NCBI RefSeq assembly: GCF_002895945.1 | Contig: NZ_NPZB01000002.1 | Location: 558,001-622,000, forward strand | Source of the DNA: Solilutibacter silvestris | GTDB lineage: Bacteria; Pseudomonadota; Gammaproteobacteria; Xanthomonadales; Xanthomonadaceae | Length of the DNA: 64,000 nt | Direction of reading: 5' to 3' | The notes under the pieces: model-generated | Seen by the model: only the letters and a program-made list of their open reading frames with translations | Database searches by the model: none | Told to the model about the DNA's origin: nothing | Shown here: positions 3,985 to 14,014 of the stretch, piece by piece | Layout: each line of letters starts with the position of its first letter | Position numbering within the stretch: position 1 is the first letter of the stretch | Translations under genes and position numbers: made by a program

Positions 3985-4007
3985 AAAAAAGCCGGCTTGC
4001 GCCGGCT
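3985..4007 (-). terminator. Original tRNA-Val terminator, separated from its gene
   Basis: Perfect 7-bp inverted repeat AGCCGGC/GCCGGCT (3990-3996 and 4001-4007, 4-nt loop) followed on the minus strand by a T-run (the A6 at 3985-3990 on the plus strand). It lies immediately downstream of the 50-nt tRNA-Val 3' remnant at 4015-4064, so it was most likely the terminator of tRNA-Val before the element inserted. It cannot end kup transcripts as a typical intrinsic terminator, because the T-run is on the other strand. Confidence 0.8.
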
Positions 4008-4013
4008 CGTGTC

Positions 4014-4064
4014 CTGGTGGGCGGTGCAGGGATCGAACCTGCGACCCTTGCCGTGTGAAGGCAA
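4014..4064 (-). repeat. attL: 51-bp direct repeat, 3' part of tRNA-Val
   Basis: 51 bp identical to 13939-13989. It comprises the 3' 50 nt of tRNA-Val(CAC) on the minus strand, from the anticodon stem-loop through the T arm and acceptor 3' strand to CCA, plus one flanking base. Sequence diverges right after the anticodon stem (position 4065), so no complete tRNA exists here. This is the chromosomal side left behind when the element recombined into the tRNA gene. Confidence 0.95.
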
Positions 4065-4154
4065 AATTCACAATCCGCAGCCGTTCATTGGGGTTTTTAA
4101 GTAGCTGATTTTAATGGCCCTATATCCGCATTCGTCCACAATTGTGCGCTACAC

Positions 4155-4181
4155 TTTTCCGCGTCACGTCCGCGCGGAAAA
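4155..4181 (+). promoter_or_regulatory. Inverted repeat over the integrase ribosome-binding region
   Basis: TTTTCCGCG (4155-4163) and CGCGGAAAA (4173-4181) are a perfect 9-bp inverted repeat with a 9-nt loop, ending five bases before the integrase ATG at 4187. The right arm holds the only Shine-Dalgarno-like purines (GGAAAA), so the hairpin could limit integrase translation, or the DNA palindrome could be an operator. The same stretch (4156-4174) is closely repeated near attR, so it may instead be an integrase arm site. Confidence 0.5.
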
Positions 4182-4186
4182 ATCCC

Positions 4187-5356
4187 ATGCCCCACGAACT
4201 GCACAAATCCGGCGTTCGCACGTCACTTGCTGTCCGCAATGAGCCCTATTGGGGCGCACCCGTTGAGCGCGGCCTGTATGTGGGGTTCCGGCGTCTCGAA
4301 CATGGCGGGAACTGGGTAGCTCGCTATCGCGTTGACTTCGCCAAGCAGCAATACAAGGCACTCGGACCCGCCACGAAGTCATTCGACTATGACGCCGCGA
4401 AAAAGGACGCCCAAGCGTGGAAGAAGGCGGTTGACGCGGGCGTCAAGACCGGCGAGGTTGAAACAGTCGCGGACGCGTGCACCTGCTACGTCAAAGCCCT
4501 GCGCAAGGCCAAGCGCGAGAAAACCGCACGCGACGCCGAACGCCGATTTGAGCGCGTGATTGATAACGACGCGCTGGGGAAGATCAGACTCGACAAACTG
4601 AAAAAGCAACACATCGAAGCATGGCGCGAACGATTGGAGGAAGGGCGGCTCGCCCCGATACCGACAAAACGAGGCCGCCCCCCAGTGGCTAAACCACTGG
4701 CACCGGCTGGGTTTAAGCGCATGCTGACCGCCCTGAAGGCTGCGCTAAATCACGCTGTCGAGGAAGAATACGTCTCGCCGGACAAAGCGATGCAGTGGCG
4801 TGGAGTGAAGCCTGAAAAAGAGGCTGACGGACGGCGCGACTTGTACCTGTCAAAACCACAGCGCCGGGCATTGCTCGATGCTGCGCAAGGCAACGTGCGT
4901 GACTTGATTGAATGCGTGGCGCTTACCGGGTGCCGTCCAGGCGATCCTGCGGTTGCACTGCGGAAGGACTACGACGCGAGCAACAAGACAGTCACATTCC
5001 GAACGAAAGACCATGCACGCACGATCCCGCTATCCCCGGCCGCAGCCGCACTACTTGATCGGCTCGCAAAATCAAAGTTGCCTAACGCCTATCTTTTTAC
5101 CCAAGACAACGGCAAGCCGTGGGCATCCAAAGAATGGGCCGCGTTAACGCGCGCAGCAGCGACGGATGCAGGATTGCCGGATGGTGTCGTCCTATACACC
5201 TTGCGGCACTGCTGGATCACTGAGGCTATCACGGGCGGAATGGACGTCCTGACCGTCGCGCGGCTGGCCGGTACGTCACTGGCGATGATTCAAAAGCACT
5301 ACGGGCATCTCGTGAGTGGCACGCGCGACCAGTTGGCTGCAATCGCAATGCTTTAA
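4187..5356 (+). CDS. int: Tyrosine recombinase (phage integrase)
   Basis: 389-aa site-specific recombinase that would integrate and excise the element at tRNA-Val. Visible: an N-terminal DUF4102/arm-binding-like region, a core-binding domain about 90-200, and the catalytic domain about 210-385 with R250 (TGCRPGDPA), K274 in the beta-hairpin (RTKDHARTIPL), R340-H341 (YTLRHCW) and the nucleophile Y372 (MIQKHYGH). The first His of the HxxR box is Tyr337, and the later His/Trp box reads AGTS; both variants occur in phage integrases. The ATG at 4187 was chosen over an upstream TTG at 4142 because it gives the usual N-terminus. It lies next to attL, as expected for an integrase gene. Confidence 0.93.
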   Translation: MPHELHKSGVRTSLAVRNEPYWGAPVERGLYVGFRRLEHGGNWVARYRVDFAKQQYKALGPATKSFDYDAAKKDAQAWKKAVDAGVKTGEVETVADACTCYVKALRKAKREKTARDAERRFERVIDNDALGKIRLDKLKKQHIEAWRERLEEGRLAPIPTKRGRPPVAKPLAPAGFKRMLTALKAALNHAVEEEYVSPDKAMQWRGVKPEKEADGRRDLYLSKPQRRALLDAAQGNVRDLIECVALTGCRPGDPAVALRKDYDASNKTVTFRTKDHARTIPLSPAAAALLDRLAKSKLPNAYLFTQDNGKPWASKEWAALTRAAATDAGLPDGVVLYTLRHCWITEAITGGMDVLTVARLAGTSLAMIQKHYGHLVSGTRDQLAAIAML

Positions 5357-5360
5357 CCGC

Positions 5361-5384
5361 CGCCCGGTGCGGTAACACCGGGCG
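5361..5384 (+). terminator. GC-rich hairpin after the integrase gene
   Basis: Perfect 9-bp inverted repeat CGCCCGGTG/CACCGGGCG with a 6-nt loop, starting five bases after the integrase stop codon. There is no T-run after it, so it is a weak intrinsic-terminator candidate; it may protect the transcript end or attenuate read-through into the small genes that follow. Confidence 0.4.
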
Positions 5385-5415
5385 ACTTCCACAACCGTCT
5401 ACTAAGGAGACGACC

Positions 5416-5775
5416 ATGACAATGCAAATGTTCACACACTGGGGCCGCAGCATGGAAGGCCCGGAGCTTGACCTATGGGTTCAAGTCGGCCAGAGCGTCA
5501 CCGAACGTATTTCGCTGGACATACGCGAGCTTCCAGCACATCCGGAGCTAATCGAGCGGATGCCCGAGACGTTCCGCTATCGCATGCTATGGGAGGCGCG
5601 CGAGGTGGGGAAAGGCAACTTCACGCTAGACCCAAAGTTTCACGGGTATGACGCGCGCGAGGTGGGGAATGCAAGCGACGAACTGGAAATGCTGTCGAAC
5701 ATGCTGGCGGCGAAGGTGCGAGCAAGGGCGGGAAAGCGCCCACCACTGCGCGTCGTCGGCGCGCAAGGTGAATGA
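5416..5775 (+). CDS. Hypothetical phage-element protein, 119 aa
   Basis: Unrecognised. A strong Shine-Dalgarno AAGGAGA lies about six bases before the ATG, the best in the element. The sequence is soluble, acidic in the first two thirds and basic near the C-terminus (AKVRARAGKRPPLRVV). It contains the repeated phrase AREVGK/AREVGN, encoded by the near-identical DNA gcgcgaggtgggga at about 5596 and 5656. Overlaps the next gene by four bases (ATGA), which suggests translational coupling. No function proposed. Confidence 0.7.
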   Translation: MTMQMFTHWGRSMEGPELDLWVQVGQSVTERISLDIRELPAHPELIERMPETFRYRMLWEAREVGKGNFTLDPKFHGYDAREVGNASDELEMLSNMLAAKVRARAGKRPPLRVVGAQGE

Positions 5776-5978
5776 CCGTGGACCATATCGACCAAATGGC
5801 GCAATTGGTGGCTGCGCGAGCGAGAATGAAACTCGGGGAAAAGCCCAAGTTTCGCGTTGTCGATCCGTCCAGCGATTCGTTATCCAGTGAGGCGATGGCA
5901 TTGGCGCGTTTCTACGATCAGGCCACGCAAAGACAACGCAATGCGTTGGACGCGGTCATGGCGGCGCTCGATGACTAG
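5772..5978 (+). CDS. Hypothetical phage-element protein, 68 aa
   Basis: Unrecognised small helical protein, coupled to the preceding gene by a 4-bp ATGA overlap. Residues 18-31 (MKLGEKPKFRVVDP) resemble the C-terminal part of the upstream protein (AGKRPPLRVVG), so the pair may have arisen by duplication or interact. Followed by a weak terminator-like hairpin at 6001-6023, making int plus these two genes a possible short operon. Confidence 0.6.
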   Translation: MTVDHIDQMAQLVAARARMKLGEKPKFRVVDPSSDSLSSEAMALARFYDQATQRQRNALDAVMAALDD

Positions 5979-6479
5979 GCTTCCACTGCTGCACACAAGT
6001 CCCGCCAACCGGCAGGCTTTTTTGTTGCGCTTGAGGGATAACCTGTTGATTTAGTTGGGTGGCAGCTGGCTTGCTTGACTTTCAATTTGATAGCGCGAAA
6101 CTTAATCCGTGCATATGAATTCGTACGCACGGATAGCCGGTGACGACCGCACTGCGACATGCATCCTTTGGGATGGGGCCATGCCCTTCGCAGGAATAGT
6201 CATCGAATAAGAACCCTGAGGGTTGGCGATCAAGAAACCACCAACCCTAGGAAGTAGTAACACCGATAGCTACATGGTGATGCGCGAGGCAGGCCGAGTG
6301 CCGGAGTGCTAACAGCACTCCAACTGCGAGTAGAGCAATCCATGAGCTAATCCCAGTTGGAACGACCCAAAAATCGTCCGACCGTTCCGCGGGGTTGGTG
6401 CATAGCCCGCAGCGAAAGCTGCGAACGCTTGCGCCGACATTCGCGTGCCGGTGCAGGCCTTGCCAAAGGTTTTGCACAC
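5979..6479. other. 500-bp gene-free region with several inverted repeats
   Basis: No convincing gene on either strand. It holds a terminator-like hairpin at its left end, then a cluster of inverted repeats: AACCCT-G-AGGGTT around 6212-6224, AGGGTTGG/CCAACCCT (6219-6226 and 6241-6248), GGAGTGCT/AGCACTCC (6303-6310 and 6314-6321), and TCCAACTG/CAGTTGGA (6319-6326 and 6354-6361). Composition is less GC-rich than the flanks. It separates the integrase group from the genes starting with the HTH protein, the position where a phage control region is expected. It could be promoter/operator DNA or a structured RNA. Confidence 0.5.
6001..6023 (+). terminator. Imperfect hairpin with T-run
   Basis: CCCGCC and GGCAGG can pair with one C-A mismatch around an AACC loop, followed directly by C then six T. 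It lies 23 bases after the 68-aa gene. A modest intrinsic terminator for the integrase-side operon. Confidence 0.45.
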
Positions 6480-6719
6480 ATGGACAAACAACAACACACC
6501 GCACACGAGCGCGGCCCCCTGCTCGACAACTACACCGCTAACGAACTGCAACTCGCATGGCCCATCGCCAAAGCGGGCGCGCGCCTTGGCGTGTGTCGCA
6601 CAAAGGCTTACGAACTCGTTAACTCGGGGCGATTGAAGGCAGTCAACATCGCCGGGAAGCGTGTCATCCCGGAATCGGAACTGCAACGGCTTGTCTCCGA
6701 ATTGTTGGAGGCCGCATGA
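6480..6719 (+). CDS. AlpA/excisionase-like helix-turn-helix protein
   Basis: 79 aa. Residues about 27-75 form a MerR/AlpA-type winged HTH of the 'helix-turn-helix domain 17' kind: AWPIAKAGARLGVCRTKAYELVNSG, then a GRLKAVNIAGKRVIPESELQRL wing. Such proteins act as excisionases or as activators of integrase and replication genes in prophages and satellites. An upstream in-frame start (6357) would add 41 Arg/Ser-rich residues typical of non-coding frame, so the ATG at 6480, with AAAGG about ten bases before it, is preferred. Overlaps the next gene by ATGA. Confidence 0.75.
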   Translation: MDKQQHTAHERGPLLDNYTANELQLAWPIAKAGARLGVCRTKAYELVNSGRLKAVNIAGKRVIPESELQRLVSELLEAA

Positions 6720-7066
6720 GCCTCAATACCAACCAGACGCGTGTTTATAGCCTCAAACTCGCTGGCGATGAGGACCCAATTCTAAGGGTCGCACTTCCCA
6801 AAGACACACCGCGCAATTATCGGGCACCCCTGATGCTGTTGCGGTGGTATCAAGACCTTCAGGTCGAACTCGAAATGTGTTTTCCGGGTGAACCATCGGT
6901 CTACGATCATTTAAAAAAATCATTACTCGTCATGCTGCGAGTCGTACGCCACGAGGTTCATGGCTGGGCCCCCGAGAGCGTGCATGAGGAGGTATGCCGC
7001 AACGACTTGCTCGGTCGGTTAGACGGGGTCCTGGGGCGCGATGAAAGCGCGGAGGAGCAGTCATGA
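6716..7066 (+). CDS. Hypothetical phage-element protein, 116 aa
   Basis: Unrecognised soluble protein, translationally coupled to the HTH gene before it and to the tail-assembly gene after it by ATGA overlaps. It contains a helical centre (YRAPLMLLRWYQDLQVELEM, then KKSLLVMLRVVRHEV) and an acidic C-terminus. Its place in the cluster suggests the same transcript, but nothing in the sequence gives a function. Confidence 0.65.
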   Translation: MSLNTNQTRVYSLKLAGDEDPILRVALPKDTPRNYRAPLMLLRWYQDLQVELEMCFPGEPSVYDHLKKSLLVMLRVVRHEVHGWAPESVHEEVCRNDLLGRLDGVLGRDESAEEQS

Positions 7067-7847
7067 GCATGGCCTACCCATCCAACATTCTCGCGACCGC
7101 GCTTGCGCCCGCACCCGTCCTTGCGCCGAAGATCGAGGTTCAGCGGCTGCGCACGATTCGGCTCTATGGCAAGCTCGGGGCGCAATTCGGCCGCGTGCAT
7201 CATCTGGCGGTTGCCAATCCTGCGGAAGCCGTGCAGGCGTTGATTCACCTGCATCCGGGCTTCGAAAAGTTTCTCATGGAAGCCAAAGACAACGGCATGG
7301 GTTTCTCCGTGTTCGTTGGTACGCGAAATATCGGCGAAAAGTCCCTGCGGCACCCGTGCGGAAACGAGGATATCCGCATCGCGCCAGTGCTGTTGAACAG
7401 CAAGAATGGATGGACTCAAGTGTTGCTGGGGATAGTGCTTATCGCGGCAACTATTGTGCTGGACATCTGGACATCTGGACGTTGGGTGGATTTTCCGAGG
7501 CAACTTACGGCGCAGGCTACGTCTACGGCATTTCAATGATCGTCGGCGGTGTCACCCAGCTTCTATCCCCTCAGCCGAAGCTCAAGAAACCATCCGAGCG
7601 CGCAGACAACACCCCGAGCTACAACTTTTCCGGCCCCGTCAACACGTCCGCGCAAGGGCACCCCGTCCCGCTGTTGTACGGCGAGATGATCGTCGGTTCC
7701 GCTGTCGCATCGGCGGGCATCAATATCAAAGACAACGGCTACGCGCCGGTCAACAGCGCGCCAACTGGTGGCGGACGTGCATGGACTAGTGCGGACGGAA
7801 CGCTAAACACCGCTGGTGCCTACACGTATGGCGGGGGTGCCGCATGA
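7063..7847 (+). pseudogene. Tail assembly protein I-like gene (lambda gpI family), frameshifted
   Basis: Two frames together give one gpI-like protein. The first (7063 to about 7480) encodes the N-terminal ubiquitin-like part (IRLYGKLGAQFGRVHHLAV) and the start of the hydrophobic stretch (VLLGIVLIAATIVL). The second (about 7475 to 7847) continues with GAGYVYGISMIVGGVTQLLSP and the conserved end VPLLYGEMIVGSAVASAGI. In lambda, gpI is needed for tail-tip assembly but is not in the virion. The break sits exactly in a CTGGACAT tandem array; removing one 8-bp unit restores a continuous 258-aa reading frame. As read, the product is cut to 158 aa with an unrelated tail. This is the only tail gene in the element. 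Confidence 0.8.
7459..7480 (+). repeat. 8-bp tandem repeat causing a frameshift
   Basis: CTGGACAT occurs twice in tandem followed by a partial CTGGAC (7459-7466, 7467-7474, 7475-7480). One unit fewer would fuse the two halves of the gpI-like gene in frame, so this looks like a recent replication-slippage duplication. It could in principle revert. Confidence 0.85.
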
Positions 7848-7993
7848 CCGCGCCTTCGATGACTTCCACCGAGTCCAACCTATTCACGGCAATGGCCGGC
7901 GACCTGGTGTTGCGATTCGGCGACGTTCACGCCGGGCTTTATGAAGCCCTGAACCGCATGGCGCAAGAGCGTGCGAAGGTTGGTGATGCTTGA
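7844..7993 (+). CDS. Hypothetical phage-element protein, 49 aa
   Basis: A short open frame starting with ATG that overlaps the end of the gpI-like gene (ATGA) and runs to TGA at 7991. The protein begins MTAPSMTSTESNLFTAM and contains GDLVLRFGDVHAGLYEALNRM. The overlaps at both ends, with the next gene's TTG start inside its stop (TTGA), and filling of an otherwise empty 140 bp support it. No family recognised. Confidence 0.5.
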   Translation: MTAPSMTSTESNLFTAMAGDLVLRFGDVHAGLYEALNRMAQERAKVGDA

Positions 7994-8574
7994 ATGTCTC
8001 CGAGATTTACGCGGCACTGGCCGCGATCGATGCCGCACTCGACGCCGGACGCATCACGCTAGAGGACTATCGCGGCATGCTCGCGGATCGCCTGCTTGAG
8101 CTCGTCCGCGCGGCGGACAAGTCCCCCGAAGGGCGCGCAATGCTCGTAGAACAGCGCAAGCGCGCAATGTTGGCGATCAATGGCAAGGACGAAAGCCTGA
8201 AAGACTTGGACGTTGACTATGCCGACCGCGCCTATGGCTGCATGGTTGTGTTAGTTATCGACCAAGTGCAGGCCGGTCGTAAAGCGCAAGGGCGCGGTCG
8301 CTACGAGCACCAAGAGCACGAATTCGCACGGGCGCGACTCGCATCGATTTGTGCGGCCACGGATTTGGCTTGCGTCCTGCTTGAAGCCTACGCATGGCCC
8401 GGCGATGACGTGTCCACCGCCGACACTTTCAACCATCGCGAGGCATGGGATCGCGCAAGCAAGGCTGGCATTAAGGCGCGTGAGTTGCAAAGCCGCATCG
8501 GCGCAAAAGTGACTCCGCGAGTCGATCAATCATTTGTTCCGCGTCATGTCACCGGAAATGGCGGTGCTTCTTGA
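7990..8574 (+). CDS. Hypothetical phage-element protein, 194 aa
   Basis: Unrecognised, largely helical soluble protein (IYAALAAIDAALDAGRITLEDYRGMLADRLLELV at the N-terminus). The start is taken as TTG at 7990, overlapping the stop of the 49-aa gene. The next gene also starts with TTG inside this gene's stop region (TTGA), giving a chain of coupled translation into the primase-helicase. This position suggests a replication-related or regulatory role, but no motif proves it. Confidence 0.65.
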   Translation: MNVSEIYAALAAIDAALDAGRITLEDYRGMLADRLLELVRAADKSPEGRAMLVEQRKRAMLAINGKDESLKDLDVDYADRAYGCMVVLVIDQVQAGRKAQGRGRYEHQEHEFARARLASICAATDLACVLLEAYAWPGDDVSTADTFNHREAWDRASKAGIKARELQSRIGAKVTPRVDQSFVPRHVTGNGGAS

Positions 8575-9824
8575 GGCCCGTCGATAAGTTTCTAGCCGCG
8601 CTTCCTGGGCGCTATCGGGGGAATGGTCACGGCAAGTGGAGGTCTGCTTGTCCTGCGCACGGGGGTGACAATCCGGGCGCGCTGGCAATTGCCGAGGGCG
8701 AGAACGGATCTGTTCTGCTTCATTGCCATGCGCATGGGTGCGATGCGGCCGCGATTGCCGAAGCCTTGGGGCTCAACCTGACAGACTTGTTCCCGGAGGA
8801 TACCAAGCGGTCGAGTGCAGGGCGTGGCCGCGAGCAATTCAAGTACCACAACAAGGCAGAGAGGCCGCCCGCCGCCGACGTGACGCAAGAGGGGCAACCC
8901 AAGCGCCGGCTGTTCACGCTGACGCGCTACGGCGAAATCGTGCGCAAACCGACTCAATGGCTGATTCAGGGCTATTTGGTGCAGGACACGACGGCCGGCC
9001 TGATTGCAGCGCCAGGATCGTGCAAATCGTTCATGGCGATCGATTGGGCCTGCCGCGTGGCAACGGGTACGCCATGGAACGGGCGTGCAGTGAAGCAAGG
9101 CGCAGTGTTCTATCTCGCGGGTGAAGGTCATGCCGGTCTGTCCAAGCGCGTTGAGGGCTGGGAAATCGCCAACGGGGTAGATATGAAGTTCGCGCCTTTG
9201 TTCATCTCTAGCGGCATGCCCTTTCTTTGTGACTCGGACAACATCGAGCAAACGATTGAAACGATCGAGGAAGCGGCTGACGCCGTTTTTTTTCAGGCAG
9301 GGGTTGAACCTGCACTAGTCGTCATCGACACGGTGGCGCGCGCCATGAACGGTGCCAACGAAAACGCAACCGAGGACATGGGGCAATTCGTCAATGCCAT
9401 GGACGAGATACGCAAGCGATGGGCCTGCACGGTGCTTTCGGTTCACCACACGGGACTAAGTGAAGGCGGGCGCGCGCGCGGATCAAGCGCCTATGCCGCC
9501 GCATTGGACAGCGATTTTTTCTTGACGAGTGCGGGTGAAGTGGTCCATTTGAAGGCAGGTGAAAAGCACAAAGACTGGTCCACCCCCCGGTCCATCACCC
9601 TAACGAAGGTCGAAGTTGAAACGTCGGTTATTGGTGAGGATGGGAAGCAGGAAACGACCTTGGTGCTGCACGATGCTGCGGGTGCAGTTATGGCGTCTGC
9701 ACTGCAAACGCAGCGGGAAAAGGCCTTGGAGTTGCGGGCGCGCGGCCTTTCACATCGAATCATCGCCGACACCGTTGGAGCATCCAAAACCACAGTACAG
9801 CGATGGCTCAAAGATGCCGCGTAA
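8571..9824 (+). CDS. Primase-helicase-like replication protein (zinc finger + RepA-type ATPase + C-terminal HTH)
   Basis: 417 aa, TTG start. The N-terminus carries a primase-type zinc site (C27, H30, C52, C57 in ACPAHGG ... HCHAHGC). Residues about 130-330 are a RecA-fold RepA/AAA_25 ATPase with a P-loop at 147-153 (APGSCKS) and Walker B VVIDT around D253, followed by VLSVHHTG. The P-loop has Cys where Gly normally precedes the Lys, an unusual but tolerable variant. The C-terminal 40 residues form an HTH (LRARGLSHRIIADTVGASKTTVQRWL) that may bind DNA. It probably starts replication of the excised element; the adjacent TGGTCCA iteron-like cluster, part of it inside this gene, is the likely target. 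Confidence 0.8.
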   Translation: MRPVDKFLAALPGRYRGNGHGKWRSACPAHGGDNPGALAIAEGENGSVLLHCHAHGCDAAAIAEALGLNLTDLFPEDTKRSSAGRGREQFKYHNKAERPPAADVTQEGQPKRRLFTLTRYGEIVRKPTQWLIQGYLVQDTTAGLIAAPGSCKSFMAIDWACRVATGTPWNGRAVKQGAVFYLAGEGHAGLSKRVEGWEIANGVDMKFAPLFISSGMPFLCDSDNIEQTIETIEEAADAVFFQAGVEPALVVIDTVARAMNGANENATEDMGQFVNAMDEIRKRWACTVLSVHHTGLSEGGRARGSSAYAAALDSDFFLTSAGEVVHLKAGEKHKDWSTPRSITLTKVEVETSVIGEDGKQETTLVLHDAAGAVMASALQTQREKALELRARGLSHRIIADTVGASKTTVQRWLKDAA

Positions 9825-9924
9825 CCAGGTGGTCCATTCGGGGGTACTACGTACCCCCCGAAAAGTGGTCCACCCCACATGGTCCACGGACCACTCACAC
9901 ATGGACCGCACTGGTCCATGGACC
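9541..9924. repeat. TGGTCCA iteron-like cluster (candidate replication origin)
   Basis: GGTCCA occurs on the plus strand at 9542, 9577, 9589, 9831, 9867, 9881 and 9913, and on the minus strand at 9902 and 9919; six of the plus copies are TGGTCCA. Two arrangements are repeated: TGGTCCACCCC followed by a second GGTCCA occurs inside the gene (9576-9594) and after it (9866-9886). The last copies form a perfect palindrome GGTCCATGGACC (9913-9924) and an inverted pair TGGTCC/GGACCA (9880-9893). Chance would give well under one such 6-mer here. Location at the 3' end of the replication gene fits an origin bound by that protein. Confidence 0.65.
9840..9858. repeat. Perfect inverted repeat within the iteron-like cluster
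   Basis: GGGGGTAC (9840-9847), a TAC loop, then GTACCCCC (9851-9858). It lies 15 bases after the primase-helicase stop codon and between two TGGTCCA copies. No T-run follows, so it is more likely a protein-binding or strand-exchange site than a terminator. Confidence 0.55.
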
Positions 9925-9949
9925 GCTACAAATTCCAAGGAACAAACCC

Positions 9950-10141
9950 ATGAAGCAATGCATCGCCTGCGGGCGAACCCTGAAACCCCACCGACACGGC
10001 AAGCGCAACCATTGCAGCGGACGGTGTGCTGCATTCGCCCAGCGGCAGCGATTCGTGGCGGTGCGCGAAGCCCGGCGAGAAGCGTATTCCTCGCGTGGAG
10101 GGGGCGCGGAGGCCCGCGATTCCGCACCCCGCGACCCGTAA
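9950..10141 (+). CDS. Small CxxC zinc-binding-like protein, 63 aa
   Basis: The protein starts MKQCIACGRTLKP and has C4-x2-C7 and C22-x3-C26 with His21, a likely zinc knuckle, then a basic Arg-rich tail (FAQRQRFVAVREARREAY). AAGG stands ten bases before the ATG at 9950. An upstream extension in the same frame would cross the TGGTCCA cluster and is not protein-like. Probably nucleic-acid binding; exact role unknown. It closes the replication module. Confidence 0.6.
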   Translation: MKQCIACGRTLKPHRHGKRNHCSGRCAAFAQRQRFVAVREARREAYSSRGGGAEARDSAPRDP

Positions 10142-10318
10142 AAAAGGACATCTAAATCAATGAGTTACAGAATCAGAGGCAGCCCAAAGCCGTGACCCTT
10201 GCCATTGAAAGGCAGGGAATGGGAAATTAAATCCTTATAAATCAAATAGTTATCAATGAAATACGTCCCGTACGGACAGCCGCGCGGAAATGTACCACCA
10301 CCACCCAAGGAACCCCAA

Positions 10319-10876
10319 ATGTCCGACCCAACCCCCGAACAAATCGAAATCGAACGCCTGCGCACCCACAACGCCGCCCTTTTGGACGAGTTGAAGGGTC
10401 TGAAAGCCGACAACAAGCGCCTGGGCGACGAGCTAACGACCGCGCACGGCGAACGTGATGCAGCACTAGCCCAGGTCGAAAGCTTCGCCGTAGGCGATCC
10501 GGTGAAGCGCATGCTGGATGACGTAAGCCCGTGCCCTGACTTGATGAAGCATCTACTCGACCGTGAGGGTTACACGTTCGCCCGCGAGAATGGCGCAATC
10601 GTCATGCGCGACCGCGATAGCAACATCCCGAAGATCATGGACGGAACGACTGAACGTGACATGGCGTTCACCGCCGCTGACCTTTGGGCGGTGCTGGGCG
10701 AGCCGCATAAGTTGCTCGAACAACGAAGCGAGGTCGCGCGCGAGTTTGCATTTACGTTCAAAGCGCCCGCAGTGAATGGCGGTGGCGCTGGCCCATCGCA
10801 CGGGCGCGTTACGTATCCGCCAGCACCAACGCCTGCACCGACACCTACCGCGTCCCCGGCGTTGGGCATTCGCTGA
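10319..10876 (+). CDS. Coiled-coil protein upstream of capsid gene (scaffold candidate)
   Basis: 185 aa. Residues about 8-52 are a clear coiled coil (QIEIERLRTHNAALLDELKGLKADNKRL, heptads with Leu/Ile), the middle is globular, and the C-terminus is a Pro/Ala/Thr-rich tail (PPAPTPAPTPTASP). The ATG at 10319 follows AAGGA; an in-frame ATG at 10256 would add 21 residues. Position directly before the major capsid gene, acidic composition and the coiled coil fit a scaffolding or capsid-assembly protein, but no family was recognised. Confidence 0.6.
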   Translation: MSDPTPEQIEIERLRTHNAALLDELKGLKADNKRLGDELTTAHGERDAALAQVESFAVGDPVKRMLDDVSPCPDLMKHLLDREGYTFARENGAIVMRDRDSNIPKIMDGTTERDMAFTAADLWAVLGEPHKLLEQRSEVAREFAFTFKAPAVNGGGAGPSHGRVTYPPAPTPAPTPTASPALGIR

Positions 10877-10883
10877 ACGAACG

Positions 10884-10923
10884 CCACGCCCGCGCGATTG
10901 ACAAAACGCGGGCGTGGTATAAT
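10884..10923 (+). promoter_or_regulatory. Promoter-like sequence embedded in a palindrome, before the capsid gene
   Basis: A perfect 11-bp inverted repeat CCACGCCCGCG (10884-10894) and CGCGGGCGTGG (10907-10917) has TTGACA (10898-10903) in its loop, and TATAAT (10918-10923) directly follows its right arm. Both hexamers are consensus, but the spacer is only 14 bp, which by itself should make a weak sigma-70 promoter. The palindrome could be an operator for a phage or helper regulator that remodels the promoter. It is the most obvious start for the capsid-terminase transcript. Confidence 0.55.
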
Positions 10924-10937
10924 TCACCTGTCGCAAA

Positions 10938-11037
10938 CCTTGTGGGTTCGCGCAACCGCAACACGCCCTTGTGGGGCATCCGCGCCAGGCAGTAGCCGCG
11001 CCGCGTTCGATCCAATCCATCCCCACAAGGAATCTTT
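10938..11037 (+). promoter_or_regulatory. Capsid gene leader with SD-sequestering repeats
   Basis: The capsid Shine-Dalgarno lies in CCCCACAAGG (11021-11030), seven bases before the ATG. A perfect complement CCTTGTGGGG occurs upstream at 10967-10976, and a second partial one (CCTTGTGGG) at 10938-10946. Either could pair with the ribosome binding site, so the leader may switch between two structures and limit capsid translation until needed. Confidence 0.45.
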
Positions 11038-12033
11038 ATGCCTACTACCGCCACGCGGATCGCGGACGTTATCGTCCCCGATGAATTTACCGACTACATC
11101 ATCCAGAACACCGCCGTGAAATCGGCGCTTGTCGAGTCTGGCTTGTGTGTCCGCAATACCGCCATCGATGCCGAACTGATGGCCGGCTCCGATCAATTCA
11201 CCATCCCGCACTGGAATGACCTGCCCGACGACGAGGCGGACATTATTTCGGATGACCCCGACGTGCTTTCGCAGCCGCACAAGGTGAACGCGGGCAAACA
11301 GGTTGTGCGCAAGAGCTTCCTGCACAATTCGTGGTCAACCATGAACCTTGCAAGCGAACTGTCCGGCAGCGATCCGCGTGCCCGCATTTCGACCCGTGCC
11401 ACTGCCTATTGGACGCGCCAGCTTCAACGCCGCCTTGTCGCCAGCTTGAACGGCATCCTTGCCGACAACGTGGCGAACGCCTCCGGCGACATGGTGAAGG
11501 ACATTTCTGGTGGCGCGGGTGCCGCCGCCGTGTTCGCGGCTCCCGCCGTCATCGATGCAGCCGGCACGTTGGGCGATTCGATGCGCGACGTGGTGGCGAT
11601 TGCCATGCATTCCGACACGTACAAGGTTGCGCTGAAGAACGACATGATCCAGGTGTTGCAGCAGAGCGATGGCGGTTTCATCCATGTGTACCGTGGCCTG
11701 CAGGTTGTGGTCGATGACGGCCTGCCCGTGTCGGCTGGCGTCTACACCACCGCGCTGTTTGGTGCGGGCGCTGTTGCCTACGGCGTCTCCGCGCCGCGCA
11801 TCGCGCTTGGCACCGAAATCGAACGCCGATGGGCGGCAGGTAACGGCGGCGGCATGGATATCCTGCATTCGCGCGTCAACCTTGCCGTGCATCCCAGTGG
11901 CTTTGCGTGGAAGGGCGCGACCATGGCCGGTGCCAGCCCGTCCCTTGCGGAACTTGCACTCCCGGCGAACTGGGGACGCGTGTTCGACCGCAAGAACGTG
12001 AAGCTGGCGTTCCTGAAGCACAAGATCGCCTAA
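11038..12033 (+). CDS. Phage major capsid protein
   Basis: 331 aa, of the Gp13-like/P22-coat-like group of HK97-fold major capsid proteins. Recognisable features are the N-terminal ATRIADVIVPDEFTDYIIQNTAVKSALVESG, the SSD-type acidic stretch (DLPDDEADIISDDPD), ARISTRATAYWTRQLQRRLVASLNG, VVAIAMHSDTYKVALKNDMI, and the repeated VVVDDGLPV/HPSGFAWKG end. Length is normal for the group. Good Shine-Dalgarno AAGGA. It would build the shell of a procapsid; no head protease is encoded nearby, which suits capsids of this type that do not need proteolytic maturation. Confidence 0.85.
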   Translation: MPTTATRIADVIVPDEFTDYIIQNTAVKSALVESGLCVRNTAIDAELMAGSDQFTIPHWNDLPDDEADIISDDPDVLSQPHKVNAGKQVVRKSFLHNSWSTMNLASELSGSDPRARISTRATAYWTRQLQRRLVASLNGILADNVANASGDMVKDISGGAGAAAVFAAPAVIDAAGTLGDSMRDVVAIAMHSDTYKVALKNDMIQVLQQSDGGFIHVYRGLQVVVDDGLPVSAGVYTTALFGAGAVAYGVSAPRIALGTEIERRWAAGNGGGMDILHSRVNLAVHPSGFAWKGATMAGASPSLAELALPANWGRVFDRKNVKLAFLKHKIA

Positions 12034-12065
12034 CGGATAGGGGCGCTGTCGTCGCGGATGGATTC

Positions 12066-12512
12066 ATGGGTTCCATCATCGGCGGCAGTGCCCCGTTTTC
12101 ATACATGGCACGAGCGAACCGCGTTGCAATCGACCGCAAGCCCCCGCGAGGTGCGGAGGACAAAGTGCGGGCATGGGCTAGCGAAGGCACCAACGTGAAG
12201 GGCATCGCCCGAAGCCTTGGCGTATCGCTGGAAACCTTCAATGTCTGGATGGATCGTCACCAATCGCTGCGGGATGCGTTCGAGGAAGGGCGGGAGACAG
12301 AGCGAAAAATGCTCCATTCGGCGCTATACCAGCTCGCCGTAGGCGGCGACAAGATCGCGGCCATGTTCCTGTTGAAGTCACGCCACGGATACCGCGAGGG
12401 CGACCAATCGGAGCAGGCAAACCGGGTGAACGTCACCTTCAACCTGCCCGGCGCGATGCCGTTGGATCAATTCAAGAAAGGGCGGGTGATCGAACATGAT
12501 CCAGACGCTTGA
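12066..12512 (+). CDS. Phage terminase small subunit-like protein
   Basis: 148 aa. Residues about 32-65 form an HTH (KVRAWASEGTNVKGIARSLGVSLETFNVWMDRH), followed by an oligomerisation helix and the typical ending GGDKIAAMFLLKSRHGYREGD seen in many small terminases. It recognises the packaging (pac/cos) site and delivers DNA to the large subunit. Overlaps the large terminase gene by 17 bp. The start could also be ATG 12105 (13 residues shorter); the first ATG after the capsid stop was used. Confidence 0.75.
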   Translation: MGSIIGGSAPFSYMARANRVAIDRKPPRGAEDKVRAWASEGTNVKGIARSLGVSLETFNVWMDRHQSLRDAFEEGRETERKMLHSALYQLAVGGDKIAAMFLLKSRHGYREGDQSEQANRVNVTFNLPGAMPLDQFKKGRVIEHDPDA

Positions 12513-13857
12513 ACTAAACGAATTTCAGCAAGCCGCCATGGCCGTACCGGAGGAACTCGACCTGTTCCTGGGCGGTGGCCGTGGTGGCGGCAAGAGCTAT
12601 GCACTCGCGCTGTTGTGCTTACGTCATGCCGAACAATACGGCAGTGATGCGCGAATGCTTTACATCCGCCGCACGTACAAGGGGCTGGCGGACTTTGAAC
12701 TTGTCTGCCGTGACCTATTCGGCAAGGTGTACGGCACCGCTGCACGCTACAACGCGGCGGAACACGTGTGGCGCTTTCCGAATGGCGCGTATCTCGAACT
12801 GGGCCAGCTTGAAAGTCACGCGGACTATGCGAAATATCAAGGCCGCAGTTTCACCATGTTGCAGGTGGACGAGGCCGGACAATTCCCCGATCCGGGCCTG
12901 TTGGACGTGCTGCGGTCGAACCTGCGCGGCCCGAAGGGGCTACCCATCCGCATGACAGTTGCGGCAAACCCCGGCGGTGCTGGGCATCATTGGCTGGCAC
13001 AACGTTACGTGTTTCGCGCAGCGCCGTGGTCGGCATTCAATGAACCCAAGAGCAAACGCGAATGGGTCTATGCGCCATCCACGTTCGCTGGGAATCACTT
13101 CATCGACCGCGAGCAATACGCCGATCAGTTGGAGTCCGCATGTCCCGACGATCCCGAATTGTTGAAGGCATGGACGGACGGAGACTGGGCGGTCAATCGC
13201 GGCGCTTACTTCGCCGGGTGTCTGGATGAAAACCGCAACGCGGTGGAGCCGTGGGACGAAATTCCCGAAGGCTGGGACGCATACCTTGCGCACGACTTTG
13301 GCAGCGCGGCCCCGAGCGCCACGTATGTGTTTGCGCAGTCACCCGGCGACGAAGTGGGCGGGGTGTTTTACCCGCGCAATAGCCTGGTCATCGTGGACGA
13401 GCTGGCGACGTACAAGGCGGGCAATCACAACCTTGGGCTGGGCTGGACGGTGCCCGTGCTGGCCGATGCAATCAAGGCTATGTGCAAGCGATGGAGCATC
13501 CGCCCTGCGGGCGTGGCGGACGATGCGTGCTTTGCGCGGACGGGACACGGTGCGGGTTCCATCGCGGACGAATTCAGGCAGGCGGGCGTGGCCTTCCATC
13601 CGGCGCGCAAGGCCGACCGCATGAGCGGCTGGAATCGGATGCGGCGTTTGCTCGCGGCAGCGGGCGACCCCGACCGGGCAGGCTTGTACGTAGCGCGGAC
13701 ATGCACGTATTTCTGGGCGACCGTGCCGTATCTCCCGCGCGATCCCAAACGCATCGAGGACATGGATAGCACCGGCCCGGATCATGGTGCCGATGCGGTG
13801 CGCTACGGATGCCTGCGGCAATCGTGGCATGCAGAGGTTAGGCCGCTGCATCTTTGA
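12496..13857 (+). CDS. Phage terminase large subunit
   Basis: 453-aa DNA-packaging motor with both enzymatic domains. The ATPase has Walker A GGRGGGKS (27-34), Walker B MLQVDEA (D125, E126) and coupling motif AANPGG (156-161). The RNase H-like nuclease has acidic residues D267 (HDFGSA), D342/D343 (ADDACF) and D433 (HGADAVRYG). Length is normal and the gene appears intact. In most phages a portal gene follows; here the gene ends 81 bp before attR and nothing follows. An intact terminase with its own small subunit means the element could package its own DNA specifically, if a portal is supplied from elsewhere. Confidence 0.92.
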   Translation: MIQTLELNEFQQAAMAVPEELDLFLGGGRGGGKSYALALLCLRHAEQYGSDARMLYIRRTYKGLADFELVCRDLFGKVYGTAARYNAAEHVWRFPNGAYLELGQLESHADYAKYQGRSFTMLQVDEAGQFPDPGLLDVLRSNLRGPKGLPIRMTVAANPGGAGHHWLAQRYVFRAAPWSAFNEPKSKREWVYAPSTFAGNHFIDREQYADQLESACPDDPELLKAWTDGDWAVNRGAYFAGCLDENRNAVEPWDEIPEGWDAYLAHDFGSAAPSATYVFAQSPGDEVGGVFYPRNSLVIVDELATYKAGNHNLGLGWTVPVLADAIKAMCKRWSIRPAGVADDACFARTGHGAGSIADEFRQAGVAFHPARKADRMSGWNRMRRLLAAAGDPDRAGLYVARTCTYFWATVPYLPRDPKRIEDMDSTGPDHGADAVRYGCLRQSWHAEVRPLHL

Positions 13858-13862
13858 AAAAC

Positions 13863-13882
13863 TTTCCGCGTGACTGTCCGCG
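13863..13882 (+). repeat. Arm-site-like repeat near attR (partner at 4156-4174)
   Basis: TTTCCGCGTGACTGTCCGCG here matches TTTCCGCGTCACGTCCGCG at 4156-4174 with one substitution and one inserted base, in the same orientation. Each copy itself contains TCCGCG twice. One lies 91 bp inside attL and the other 56 bp inside attR, so in the excised circle they flank the core, as lambda-type integrase arm sites do. Confidence 0.5.
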
Positions 13883-13902
13883 TGAGTTTTTGCGGCAGCG
13901 TA

Positions 13903-13933
13903 TAAAAAAGAAAAACCCCTGAAAAATCAGGGG
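13903..13933 (-). terminator. Replacement tRNA-Val terminator supplied by the element
   Basis: Perfect 7-bp inverted repeat CCCCTGA/TCAGGGG (13916-13922 and 13927-13933, AAAA loop on the plus strand), followed on the minus strand by TTTTTCTTTTTT. It sits six bases beyond the tRNA-Val CCA end, inside the element, and takes over from the original terminator now stranded at 3985-4007. Confidence 0.85.
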
Positions 13934-13938
13934 CTTAT

Positions 13939-13989
13939 CTGGTGGGCGGTGCAGGGATCGAACCTGCGACCCTTGCCGTGTGAAGGCAA
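13939..13989 (-). repeat. attR: 51-bp direct repeat within tRNA-Val
   Basis: Identical to 4014-4064. Here the repeat is joined to the tRNA 5' half, so the element-derived 3' part rebuilds a functional tRNA-Val gene. The crossover must lie within these 51 bp, probably in the anticodon stem-loop, the most common site for tyrosine integrases in tRNA genes. Confidence 0.95.
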
Positions 13990-14014
13990 TGCTCTACCGC
14001 TGAGCTAACCGCCC
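13940..14014 (-). tRNA. tRNA-Val (anticodon CAC)
   Basis: 75 nt including an encoded CCA. The acceptor stem GGGCGGT pairs with ACCGCCC; the D arm is TAGCTCAGCGGTAGAG-like; the anticodon stem TTGCC/GGCAA holds the loop TTCACAC (anticodon CAC, reads GUG); the T arm is GCAGG-TTCGATC-CCTGC. Its 3' 50 nt duplicate attL, so this copy is part host and part element but complete. Confidence 0.97.

What the first reader, a model, noticed from the sequence alone, without database searches (positions are those of the whole stretch)
4014..13989. Compact tRNA-Val element with capsid and terminase genes but no portal, tail or lysis genes
Seen: int, AlpA-like HTH, primase-helicase, scaffold candidate, capsid, TerS and TerL, all intact and in one direction, bounded by 51-bp att repeats. 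Known: capsid-forming phage-inducible islands encode int, alpA, pri-rep, capsid and terminase and take tails from a helper phage. Inference: this may be a satellite of that kind in a Xanthomonadaceae host, but with a still smaller head set (no portal, protease or connector) and an unusual order in which both terminase genes follow the capsid. It would have to obtain a portal from the helper as well. The alternative is a prophage that lost its tail and portal genes.
Basis: partly seen in the sequence, partly recalled or inferred. Interest (0 to 1): 0.85.

Follow-up and report, generated by a model that had tools for sequence, protein, structure and literature searches.

The report
Phage satellite with portal-less head genes
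A ten-thousand-base mobile element carries genes for a virus shell and a DNA-packing motor but not the doorway ring (portal) between them, so it probably takes that ring and the tail from a passing virus; relatives with the same gap occur in very different bacteria.

Summary
The element is real: 4014-13989, 51-bp perfect att repeats, inserted between tRNA-Val and that gene's own terminator. It encodes integrase, AlpA-like protein, primase-helicase, scaffold, major capsid protein (MCP), TerS and TerL; no portal was found. Correction: it also carries a lambda gpI-type tail-assembly gene, frameshifted here. It is not a lone deleted prophage. Related TerL (52-80%) and MCP (53-67%) genes sit in 7.8-13.5 kb integrated or circular elements, in Proteobacteria and Acidobacteria; best-ranked annotated phages reach about 33% and 41%. 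On a 34-row tree 23 satellite MCPs separate from 11 phage MCPs (100/100). Relatives' MCP and TerL are under purifying selection (dN/dS 0.05-0.15). A portal profile matched 0 of 37 satellite loci. The capsid is SPP1-type: SPP1 needs only portal, scaffold and MCP for packaging-competent procapsids and has no protease, so one essential head protein is missing. Best explanation: a satellite that builds its own shell and motor on a helper phage's portal, then takes its neck and tail. That mechanism is inferred. It fails the published cf-PICI definition. I found no published description in my limited searches. Verdict: new variant of a known kind.

The parts
3989..4008 (-). native tRNA-Val terminator hairpin, displaced to the far side of the element
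   Evidence: terminator scan; contiguous with tRNA-Val in congener L036
4014..4064 (.). distal att repeat (3' part of tRNA-Val)
   Evidence: 51-bp perfect repeat
4142..5356 (+). tyrosine integrase (ATG start possible at 4187)
   Evidence: PF00589 2.2e-9, phrog_1 8e-47
5416..5775 (+). unknown 119-aa protein
   Evidence: ORF; no family
5772..5978 (+). unknown 68-aa protein
   Evidence: ORF; no family
6480..6719 (+). AlpA-like helix-turn-helix regulator/excisionase
   Evidence: HTH_17 6e-9, phrog_66 2.5e-3
6716..7066 (+). unknown 116-aa protein
   Evidence: no family; no phage match
7063..7539 (+). lambda gpI-like tail-assembly protein, first part
   Evidence: phrog_32 1.3e-28, Lambda_tail_I 2.7e-4 (below Pfam's cut-off)
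7461..7480 (+). tandem 8-bp repeat at the frameshift of the tail-assembly gene
   Evidence: relatives with the gene in one frame, 202 and 205 aa
7480..7847 (+). second part of the tail-assembly gene, in another frame
   Evidence: phrog_32 positions 113-201, 1.1e-29
7844..7993 (+). unknown 49-aa protein
   Evidence: no family
7990..8574 (+). unknown 194-aa protein
   Evidence: no family, no phage match; low-confidence helical model
8571..9824 (+). primase-helicase (AAA_25) with C-terminal HTH
   Evidence: PF13481 1e-36, phrog_906 1e-45
9803..10141 (+). small cysteine-rich protein, weak HNH-family match; start may be 9951
   Evidence: phrog_1271 1e-5
10319..10876 (+). head scaffolding protein candidate (long coiled coil, GGGA motif; C-terminal FGLR-type motif in most relatives)
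   Evidence: phrog_206 1.3e-3, weak; family alignment; hhalign to phage scaffolds; model
11038..12033 (+). major capsid protein, SPP1 gp13 type
   Evidence: phrog_247 5e-89; PDB 4an5 E 6.5e-66; tree
12051..12512 (+). small terminase subunit (ATG start possible at 12066)
   Evidence: phrog_309 1e-14
12496..13857 (+). large terminase subunit, conserved ATPase and nuclease residues
   Evidence: PF04466 2e-10, phrog_2 7e-28; alignment A3
13913..13936 (-). terminator-like hairpin of the element, just downstream of tRNA-Val
13939..13989 (.). proximal att repeat inside tRNA-Val
13940..14014 (-). tRNA-Val(CAC), intact, target site

Best explanation
The element is an integrated phage satellite of a widespread family. 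Steps that the sequence shows: integration into the 3' end of tRNA-Val, and genes for an integrase, an AlpA-like regulator, a primase-helicase, an SPP1-type capsid protein with a scaffold candidate beside it, and both terminase subunits. Steps that are inferred: when a tailed phage (head of the SPP1/Nipunavirus kind, perhaps with a lambda-like tail tip) infects or is induced, the element excises and replicates with its own primase-helicase. Its scaffold and capsid protein polymerise on the helper's portal ring. Its TerS-TerL motor docks on that portal and packs satellite DNA. The helper's neck and tail then complete the particle. The portal would thus be the hand-over point between satellite head and helper tail.
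For: Relatives with TerL and/or scaffold+MCP and no portal: 13 TerL loci from genome contigs (L014 and L018 are remnants or fragments), one more family genome with scaffold, MCP, TerS, TerL (G239) and one with MCP fragments (G148), and IMG/VR loci. Seven genome loci including the window share the order int ... primase-helicase, scaffold, MCP, TerS, TerL. Att repeats bound 9 of 13 loci tested, 8.9-13.5 kb. 5 of 16 contigs tested close into circles of 7.8-9.8 kb. Portal, MuF and major-tail profiles matched 0 of 37 satellite loci, while the 4 phages from which the portal profile was built all matched it. MCP tree: 23 satellites on one side of a 100/100 branch, 11 phages on the other, 0 of 500 shuffles as low. 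dN/dS 0.046-0.149 in 10 pairs of relatives. The MCP profile hits SPP1 gp13. The scaffold family matches the phage scaffold profile at 92.7% probability against under 1% for 4 controls. SPP1: gp6+gp11+gp13 are 'sufficient and necessary' for packaging-competent procapsids, and gp11+gp13 alone assemble normal and smaller procapsids (PMC6316719, passages).
Against: No particle, excision or packaging was observed for this copy. Its nearest MCP relative is only 66% identical, none of the ten dN/dS pairs includes it, and its tail-assembly gene is frameshifted. The scaffold call is the weakest: PHROG E only 1.3e-3, and a profile of three phage scaffolds matched 0 of 37 satellite loci at E 0.001. No portal of four families was found anywhere in the host's 2.85-Mb genome, so a resident helper, if any, has another portal type. 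The family is sparse: MCP in 3 of 297 family genomes, its own included; TerL in 3 of 369 class genomes at E 1e-60, its own included, the other two only 41-43% identical. Some relatives have TerS-TerL but no capsid, or capsid but no terminase, so the modules need not always work together. Five proteins of the window have no family, though none exceeds 194 aa.
Confidence: 0.68

Rival explanations
1. Satellite, but the capsid protein and scaffold act as redirectors: they co-assemble with helper capsid protein to make small heads, as SaPIbov5 Ccm does with phi12, rather than forming a whole satellite shell.
For: SaPIbov5 Ccm is a capsid-protein homologue that shifts helper heads to small isometric ones and cannot form capsids alone (PMC8569155, passages). 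Some relatives carry scaffold+MCP without terminase (L069, L074).
Against: The element encodes its own scaffold candidate and both terminase subunits, a complete head-building and packaging set apart from the portal. Best-ranked annotated phage MCPs are only about 41% identical. MCP and TerL occur together in 20 of the 31 satellites of the TerL tree (L017, with an MCP remnant, counted among the 20).
Confidence: 0.15
2. Prophage that lost portal, neck, tail and lysis genes; a remnant on its way out.
For: The tail-assembly gene is frameshifted; only one copy in the host and no close relative; a gpI gene is otherwise a phage gene.
Against: The same gap recurs in satellites of two phyla with purifying selection, in closed circles and in att-bounded elements. 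No annotated phage record at 60% identity or more to this TerL or MCP. Integrase, att sites and all head and packaging genes are open.
Confidence: 0.04
3. The element makes no infectious particle itself. The packaging and tail-assembly genes are kept as anti-phage interference (for example Tai-like tail-assembly inhibition, or decoy capsids).
For: [quoted passage not shown] A gpI-like gene recurs in this family.
Against: TerL with invariant ATPase and nuclease residues, circular forms and integration at tRNA genes point to transfer. The Tai paper's text has no mention of Lambda_tail_I or 'tail assembly protein', and homology between Tai and gpI was not tested.
Confidence: 0.08

Closest known systems
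Capsid-forming PICI (cf-PICI)
   Same: Integrase, AlpA-like regulator, primase, own MCP, TerS and TerL, small size, tails presumably from a helper
   Different: [quoted passage not shown] none of the first three was found in the window. The capsid here is SPP1-type with a separate scaffold candidate.
SPP1-type phage head module (SPP1; Nipunavirus DoCa3)
   Same: Scaffold next to MCP (phrog_206 + phrog_247), no protease, TerS/TerL
   Different: In DoCa3 TerL, portal and MuF precede the scaffold and MCP. In the satellite portal and MuF are absent and the terminase follows the MCP. Edwardsiella phage eiAU has the same phage gene order and a tail-I gene among the closest to the window's, but its MCP, scaffold and TerL gave no blastp match to satellite ORFs.
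SaPIbov5 (Ccm)
   Same: A satellite that carries a capsid-protein homologue and uses the helper's portal
   Different: SaPIbov5 uses helper capsid protein for the shell (PMC8569155, passages); here a scaffold candidate and both terminase subunits are also encoded
MulchRoom / MiniFlayer satellites
   Same: Satellites with their own capsid, scaffold and terminase
   Different: They encode a portal and a head-tail adaptor (PMC10690885, passages)
PLE11 chimeric tails
   Same: Satellites that add their own tail-assembly proteins to helper tails; relatives here encode gpI, neck or tape-measure genes
   Different: PLE uses helper capsid protein; its own tail parts are TMP, tail chaperone and baseplate hub rather than gpI (PMC12987554, passages)

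Membership tests
Phage satellite (general) | Small integrative element with its own integrase, att sites and replication gene | tested here: met
Phage satellite (general) | Lacks a complete virion gene set (no portal, tail tube, tape measure or lysis genes) | tested here: met
   only a gpI-like tail-assembly gene among tail genes
Phage satellite (general) | Mobilised by a helper phage | not testable with these tools
   needs induction or infection
cf-PICI | Own major capsid protein, TerS and TerL | tested here: met
cf-PICI | Integrase, AlpA, primase | tested here: met
cf-PICI | Own portal protein | tested here: not met
   no PHROG/Pfam portal match in the ORFs scanned; local profile 0 of 37 satellite loci; largest unassigned ORF of the gene set 194 aa
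cf-PICI | Head maturation protease | tested here: not met
   no match in the ORFs scanned
cf-PICI | Head-tail connectors | tested here: not met
   none in the window; an adaptor in relative L066, Neck1 genes in L065, L083, L020
cf-PICI | HNH endonuclease for packaging | tested here: inconclusive
   112-aa ORF with weak HNH-family match, E 1e-5
SPP1-type head module | gp13-type MCP | tested here: met
   PDB 4an5 E 6.5e-66
SPP1-type head module | Separate scaffold protein | tested here: met
   weak phrog_206 match, hhalign 92.7%, coiled-coil model; against: phage-scaffold profile 0 of 37 at E 0.001. That it is uncleaved is not tested
SPP1-type head module | gp6-type portal | tested here: not met
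   PF05133 0 of 13 host genomes, own included

The most novel reading that the evidence does not exclude
An unnamed, widespread satellite family keeps every essential SPP1-type head and packaging part except the portal, and uses the helper's portal ring as the nucleus of its own shell and the dock of its own motor. Head, neck and tail parts are swapped among members as cassettes, and in some members the late tail and packaging genes are written with in-frame TAG codons, so that they could be read only in a cell where a helper has changed the code.
Probability: 0.4. Interest if true: 0.88.

Novelty: new variant of a known kind. Interest (0 to 1): 0.78.

Why it matters
The portal is generally taken as the nucleus of tailed-phage head assembly. 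A satellite family that encodes the other essential head parts but leaves out exactly that one would show that a foreign portal can seed a shell of another virus and dock another virus's motor. That makes portal-capsid and portal-terminase specificity directly testable in a natural system. It also shifts the known boundary between what a capsid-forming satellite makes and what it steals. It suggests that tools which require a portal, protease or connector would miss such elements.

Tried and rejected
Rejected: lone deleted prophage (recurrent architecture, clade, selection, circles). Rejected: a hidden portal in the unknown window ORFs (largest 194 aa; Nipunavirus and eiAU portals are 518 and 486 aa by the coordinates). 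Rejected: resident helper with a portal of the four families searched in the host genome (0 hits); other portal families were not searched.

Led nowhere: single-sequence MCP pattern scan of genome contigs (38 stretches matched a pattern, 0 relatives; the patterns are narrow). Structure model of the 194-aa ORF (pLDDT 58, not used). Foldseek of the scaffold model in viral structures (no match at E 0.001; best an eiAU protein of 222 aa, E 0.02, the same length as eiAU's annotated scaffold; that they are the same protein was not checked). Profile of TerL against the PDB (none). Scaffold profile against the PDB (only chance-level coiled coils and the like). The TerL tree has long phage branches and a tool warning; only the mixing of capsid-plus and capsid-minus members is used from it.

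Not in the 37-locus profile count: L014 (TerL only), L021-L025 and L028 (TAG-bearing loci), L031 (MCP fragments), sub-loci L001-L005, and the phage or unassigned loci L029, L056, L075-L077, L079, L080, L082, L087, L090 and onward. Several of the 37 are contig fragments; 14 are complete (nine att-bounded, five circular).
Full report
OBSERVATION. The window holds a 9.98-kb element bounded by a perfect 51-bp repeat (4014-4064, 13939-13989). The right copy lies in an intact tRNA-Val(CAC) gene on the minus strand. In congener G236 the same tRNA-Val is followed within a few bases by a GC-rich hairpin terminator; in the window that terminator is at 3989-4008, on the far side of the element. The element brings a terminator-like hairpin of its own next to the tRNA (13913-13936). 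DNA like the tRNA-Val region was found in 17 of 17 genus genomes. Among 20 loci from them, which reach about 1.5 kb to either side, TerL was found only in the window's own and the integrase in none. I read the empty site base by base in G236 only. So this is a real insertion.

GENES. Integrase, AlpA-like HTH, AAA_25 primase-helicase, scaffold candidate (phrog_206, E 1.3e-3, weak), MCP (phrog_247, E 5e-89), TerS and TerL are present and open. Relatives L008 and L070 have it in one frame (202 and 205 aa), so the window's copy is broken. Five proteins without any family are 49 to 194 aa; a sixth, of 112 aa, has a weak HNH match. The phage portals seen here are 485 aa or longer.

RELATIVES. A TerL scan of 84,980 species genomes gave 13 relatives at 64-80% identity, titled Pseudomonas (2), Stutzerimonas, Luteimonas, Moraxella, Roseomonas, Burkholderiaceae, Burkholderiales, Caulobacteraceae, Rhodanobacter and the acidobacteria Terriglobus (2) and dw_441 (several are metagenome bins, and dw_441 covers 191 residues only). 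Against this, the best-ranked of 50,697 phage records reach about 33% for TerL and 41% for MCP, and none reaches 60%; the plasmid collection gives about 33% for TerL. IMG/VR contigs with phage portals or MuF genes come nearer: up to 42% for TerL (L086) and 46% for MCP (L076). A scan of IMG/VR with an alignment of 12 satellite MCPs gave 22 relatives: 14 at 55-67%, all on contigs of at most 11.1 kb, and 8 at 35-46%, which include clear phages with MuF, portal or adaptor genes. Seven genome loci including the window (L006, L008, L009, L016, L011, L030) share int ... primase-helicase, scaffold, MCP, TerS, TerL. Terriglobus L013 and L015 have MCP, TerS, TerL, then scaffold, primase and integrase. 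In Roseomonas L017 a transposase-like gene adjoins a short MCP remnant. Att repeats bound 9 of 13 loci tested, 8.9-13.5 kb apart; five of the nine are 16-22 bp long, so those ends are less sure. 5 of 16 contigs tested close into circles of 7.8-9.8 kb (L063, L069, L071, L074, L088), L063 and L088 by overlaps of 98.6 and 99.2% identity. Of the circles, L063 and L071 hold scaffold, MCP, TerS and TerL; L069 and L074 lack terminase; L088 lacks MCP. In L063 TerL runs on to the integrase across a stretch that reads like a tRNA end (by eye).

NO PORTAL. Profiles for portal, MuF, adaptor Ad1, head closure, tail terminator, major tail protein, tape measure and phage scaffold, built from 1 to 4 phages each, were run on all stop-to-stop ORFs of 60 aa or more of 37 satellite loci and 4 phages. 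Portal matched 4 of 4 phages (its own sources) and 0 of 37 satellites; the only satellite match of any profile was Ad1 in L066. Two limits: the tape-measure profile missed tape-measure-like genes found by other means in L019 and L085, so these small profiles miss distant members; and the phage-scaffold profile matched 3 of 4 phages and 0 of 37 satellites. PHROG scans of the large unassigned genes in relatives gave primases, helicases, recombinases, a transposase, HNH proteins, weak methyltransferase and terminase matches, unknown families or no hit, and a tape-measure-like protein in L019, but no portal. In the host genomes the portal families phrog_145, PF04860, PF05136 and PF05133 matched 1 of 14, 3 of 13, 1 of 13 and 0 of 13. 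The window's own genome had none. One hit is a partial resident SPP1-like prophage in Moraxella oculi (L056; tape measure, MCP at 25%, scaffold-like gene, MuF, portal piece), a candidate helper for satellite L011.

FUNCTIONAL CONSTRAINT. On a 34-row MCP tree the 23 satellite MCPs are one side of a branch with 100/100 support and the 11 phage MCPs the other; 0 of 500 shuffles were as low. Only one of the 11 is an annotated phage (DoCa3); the rest are IMG/VR contigs and the Moraxella prophage, and several have long branches. dN/dS was 0.046-0.149 in ten pairs of MCP or TerL genes of relatives (simple counting method, some pairs with high dS, the window in none of them). TerL keeps the Walker A stretch, DE, and the D267, D342/D343, D429, D433 positions in 17 of 17 sequences (their catalytic role is recalled).

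MECHANISM. The MCP profile hits SPP1 gp13 in the PDB (4an5, E 6.5e-66), and the scaffold family matches a profile of three phage scaffolds (92.7% against 0.04-0.5% for MuF, Ad1, portal and TMP controls). In 19 scaffolds the GGGA-like motif and an FGLR-type C-terminus recur, and the window's scaffold is modelled as a 64-residue helix followed by a small alpha/beta domain and a loose tail (mean pLDDT 84). In SPP1, gp6 (portal), gp11 and gp13 are 'sufficient and necessary' for packaging-competent procapsids, gp11+gp13 alone form normal and smaller procapsids, and MuF gp7 is dispensable (PMC6316719, passages). SPP1 has no internal protease (PMC6813328, passages). Thus the element lacks one essential head protein, the portal, plus neck and tail. 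That the helper's portal fills the gap is inference. Tail-type clue: the gpI gene is closest to those of eiAU (51.6%), Stenotrophomonas phages and Burkholderia KS9 (54%) among the rows listed. eiAU has the phage gene order TerS-TerL-portal-head morphogenesis-scaffold-MCP and a gpI-type gene, but its MCP, scaffold and TerL gave no blastp match to satellite ORFs. This hints at the helper's kind of tail and does not identify it.

MODULARITY. Within the TerL tree 20 capsid-plus and 11 capsid-minus satellites are mixed: fewest changes 5, at least 3 forced by starred branches (long branches, tool warning). tblastn found no MCP or scaffold in the 11 capsid-minus loci (some are contig fragments), and no TerL in the circular capsid-plus elements L069 and L074. 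Single members add an Ad1 adaptor (L066), Neck1 (L065, L083, L020), gpI (window, L008, L065, L070, L083), or a tape measure (L019, L085). Satellite-encoded tape measures and chimeric tails are published for PLE11, with putative tmp genes in cf-PICIs (PMC12987554, passages).

COMPARISON. cf-PICIs are described as encoding MCP, protease, portal, connectors, terminases and HNH (PMC10690885, passages; the original cf-PICI paper and the satellite census were not held). MulchRoom and MiniFlayer have a portal (same source). SaPIbov5 has a capsid homologue that cannot form capsids alone (PMC8569155, passages). In seven paper searches on satellites (open-licence papers only, capped listings and abstract starts seen; two more were on SPP1 and recoding) I found no description of a capsid+scaffold+terminase satellite without a portal. 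Absence from that library is weak evidence of novelty. VEIMEs and tycheposons, known to me only by mention in these papers and recall, were not compared in detail.

VERDICT. Satellite identity is very likely; own shell on a borrowed portal is the most likely mechanism but untested. New variant of a known kind; interest 0.78. On checking I lowered the probability of the most novel reading from 0.45 to 0.40, because part of the TAG count turned out to hold by construction (see Noticed in passing) and because of the scaffold-profile miss.

Noticed in passing
L028:5338-8283, L025:2-2239, L159:404-3472, L021:426-1184, TerL of L021-L025 and L028 (IMG/VR contigs): Related satellites whose tape-measure, tail-I and TerL frames hold in-frame TAG. 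In frames bounded by tblastn matches (TerL of six contigs, L159 tape measure) there are 17 TAG and no TGA or TAA in 3398 codons; in the L028, L025, L021 and L022 tape-measure and tail-I frames 18 TAG, where TGA and TAA are absent by construction (close relatives counted). Read with TAG as glutamine they match phrog_24 (E 1e-124) and phrog_32 (E 3e-57). TerL differences are mostly at third codon positions. Integrase and two other L028 ORFs are open without TAG, but were called under the standard code, so early-late contrast is not a fair test. No suppressor tRNA on six of these contigs. TAG looks like a sense codon in these late genes.
   Followed up: partly
L069 and L074 (IMG/VR): Closed circles of 7.84 and 7.90 kb with scaffold and MCP but no terminase; L074 has a resolvase and L069 a member of the same cluster plus a Rep_1-type replication protein: possible capsid-bearing satellite plasmids.
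   Followed up: partly
L019:6488-8374 and L085:10006-13200 (IMG/VR): Terminase-bearing, capsid-less satellites that encode tape-measure-like proteins (phrog_28 E 1.6e-9; phrog_24 E 3e-34).
   Followed up: partly
L066:1677-2123; L065:8082-8531; L083:4269-4661; L020:8334-8729: Satellites carrying single neck genes: head-tail adaptor Ad1 (L066) or Neck1 (the others).
   Followed up: partly
L056 (Moraxella oculi contig): Partial resident SPP1-like prophage (portal piece, MuF, scaffold-like gene, MCP, tape measure) in the genome that also holds satellite L011; a candidate helper.
   Followed up: partly
L058 (G289:C114), 1082-2182: In a congener a partial 49-bp tRNA-Val copy lies next to a 366-aa protein that reads by eye like a tyrosine integrase, suggesting another element uses the same tRNA-Val.
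   Followed up: no
L010_9, L083_6, L088_1 (about 233 aa); L061, L062, L089 (about 250 aa): Two families of unknown proteins near the terminase in capsid-less satellites; might act on helper head assembly. No family match for the members scanned: L010_9, L083_6 and L061.
   Followed up: no
window 10188-10220: A stretch resembling part of the tRNA-Val 3' region (cgtgacccttgccattgaaaggca) lies inside the element just upstream of the scaffold; seen by eye.
   Followed up: no
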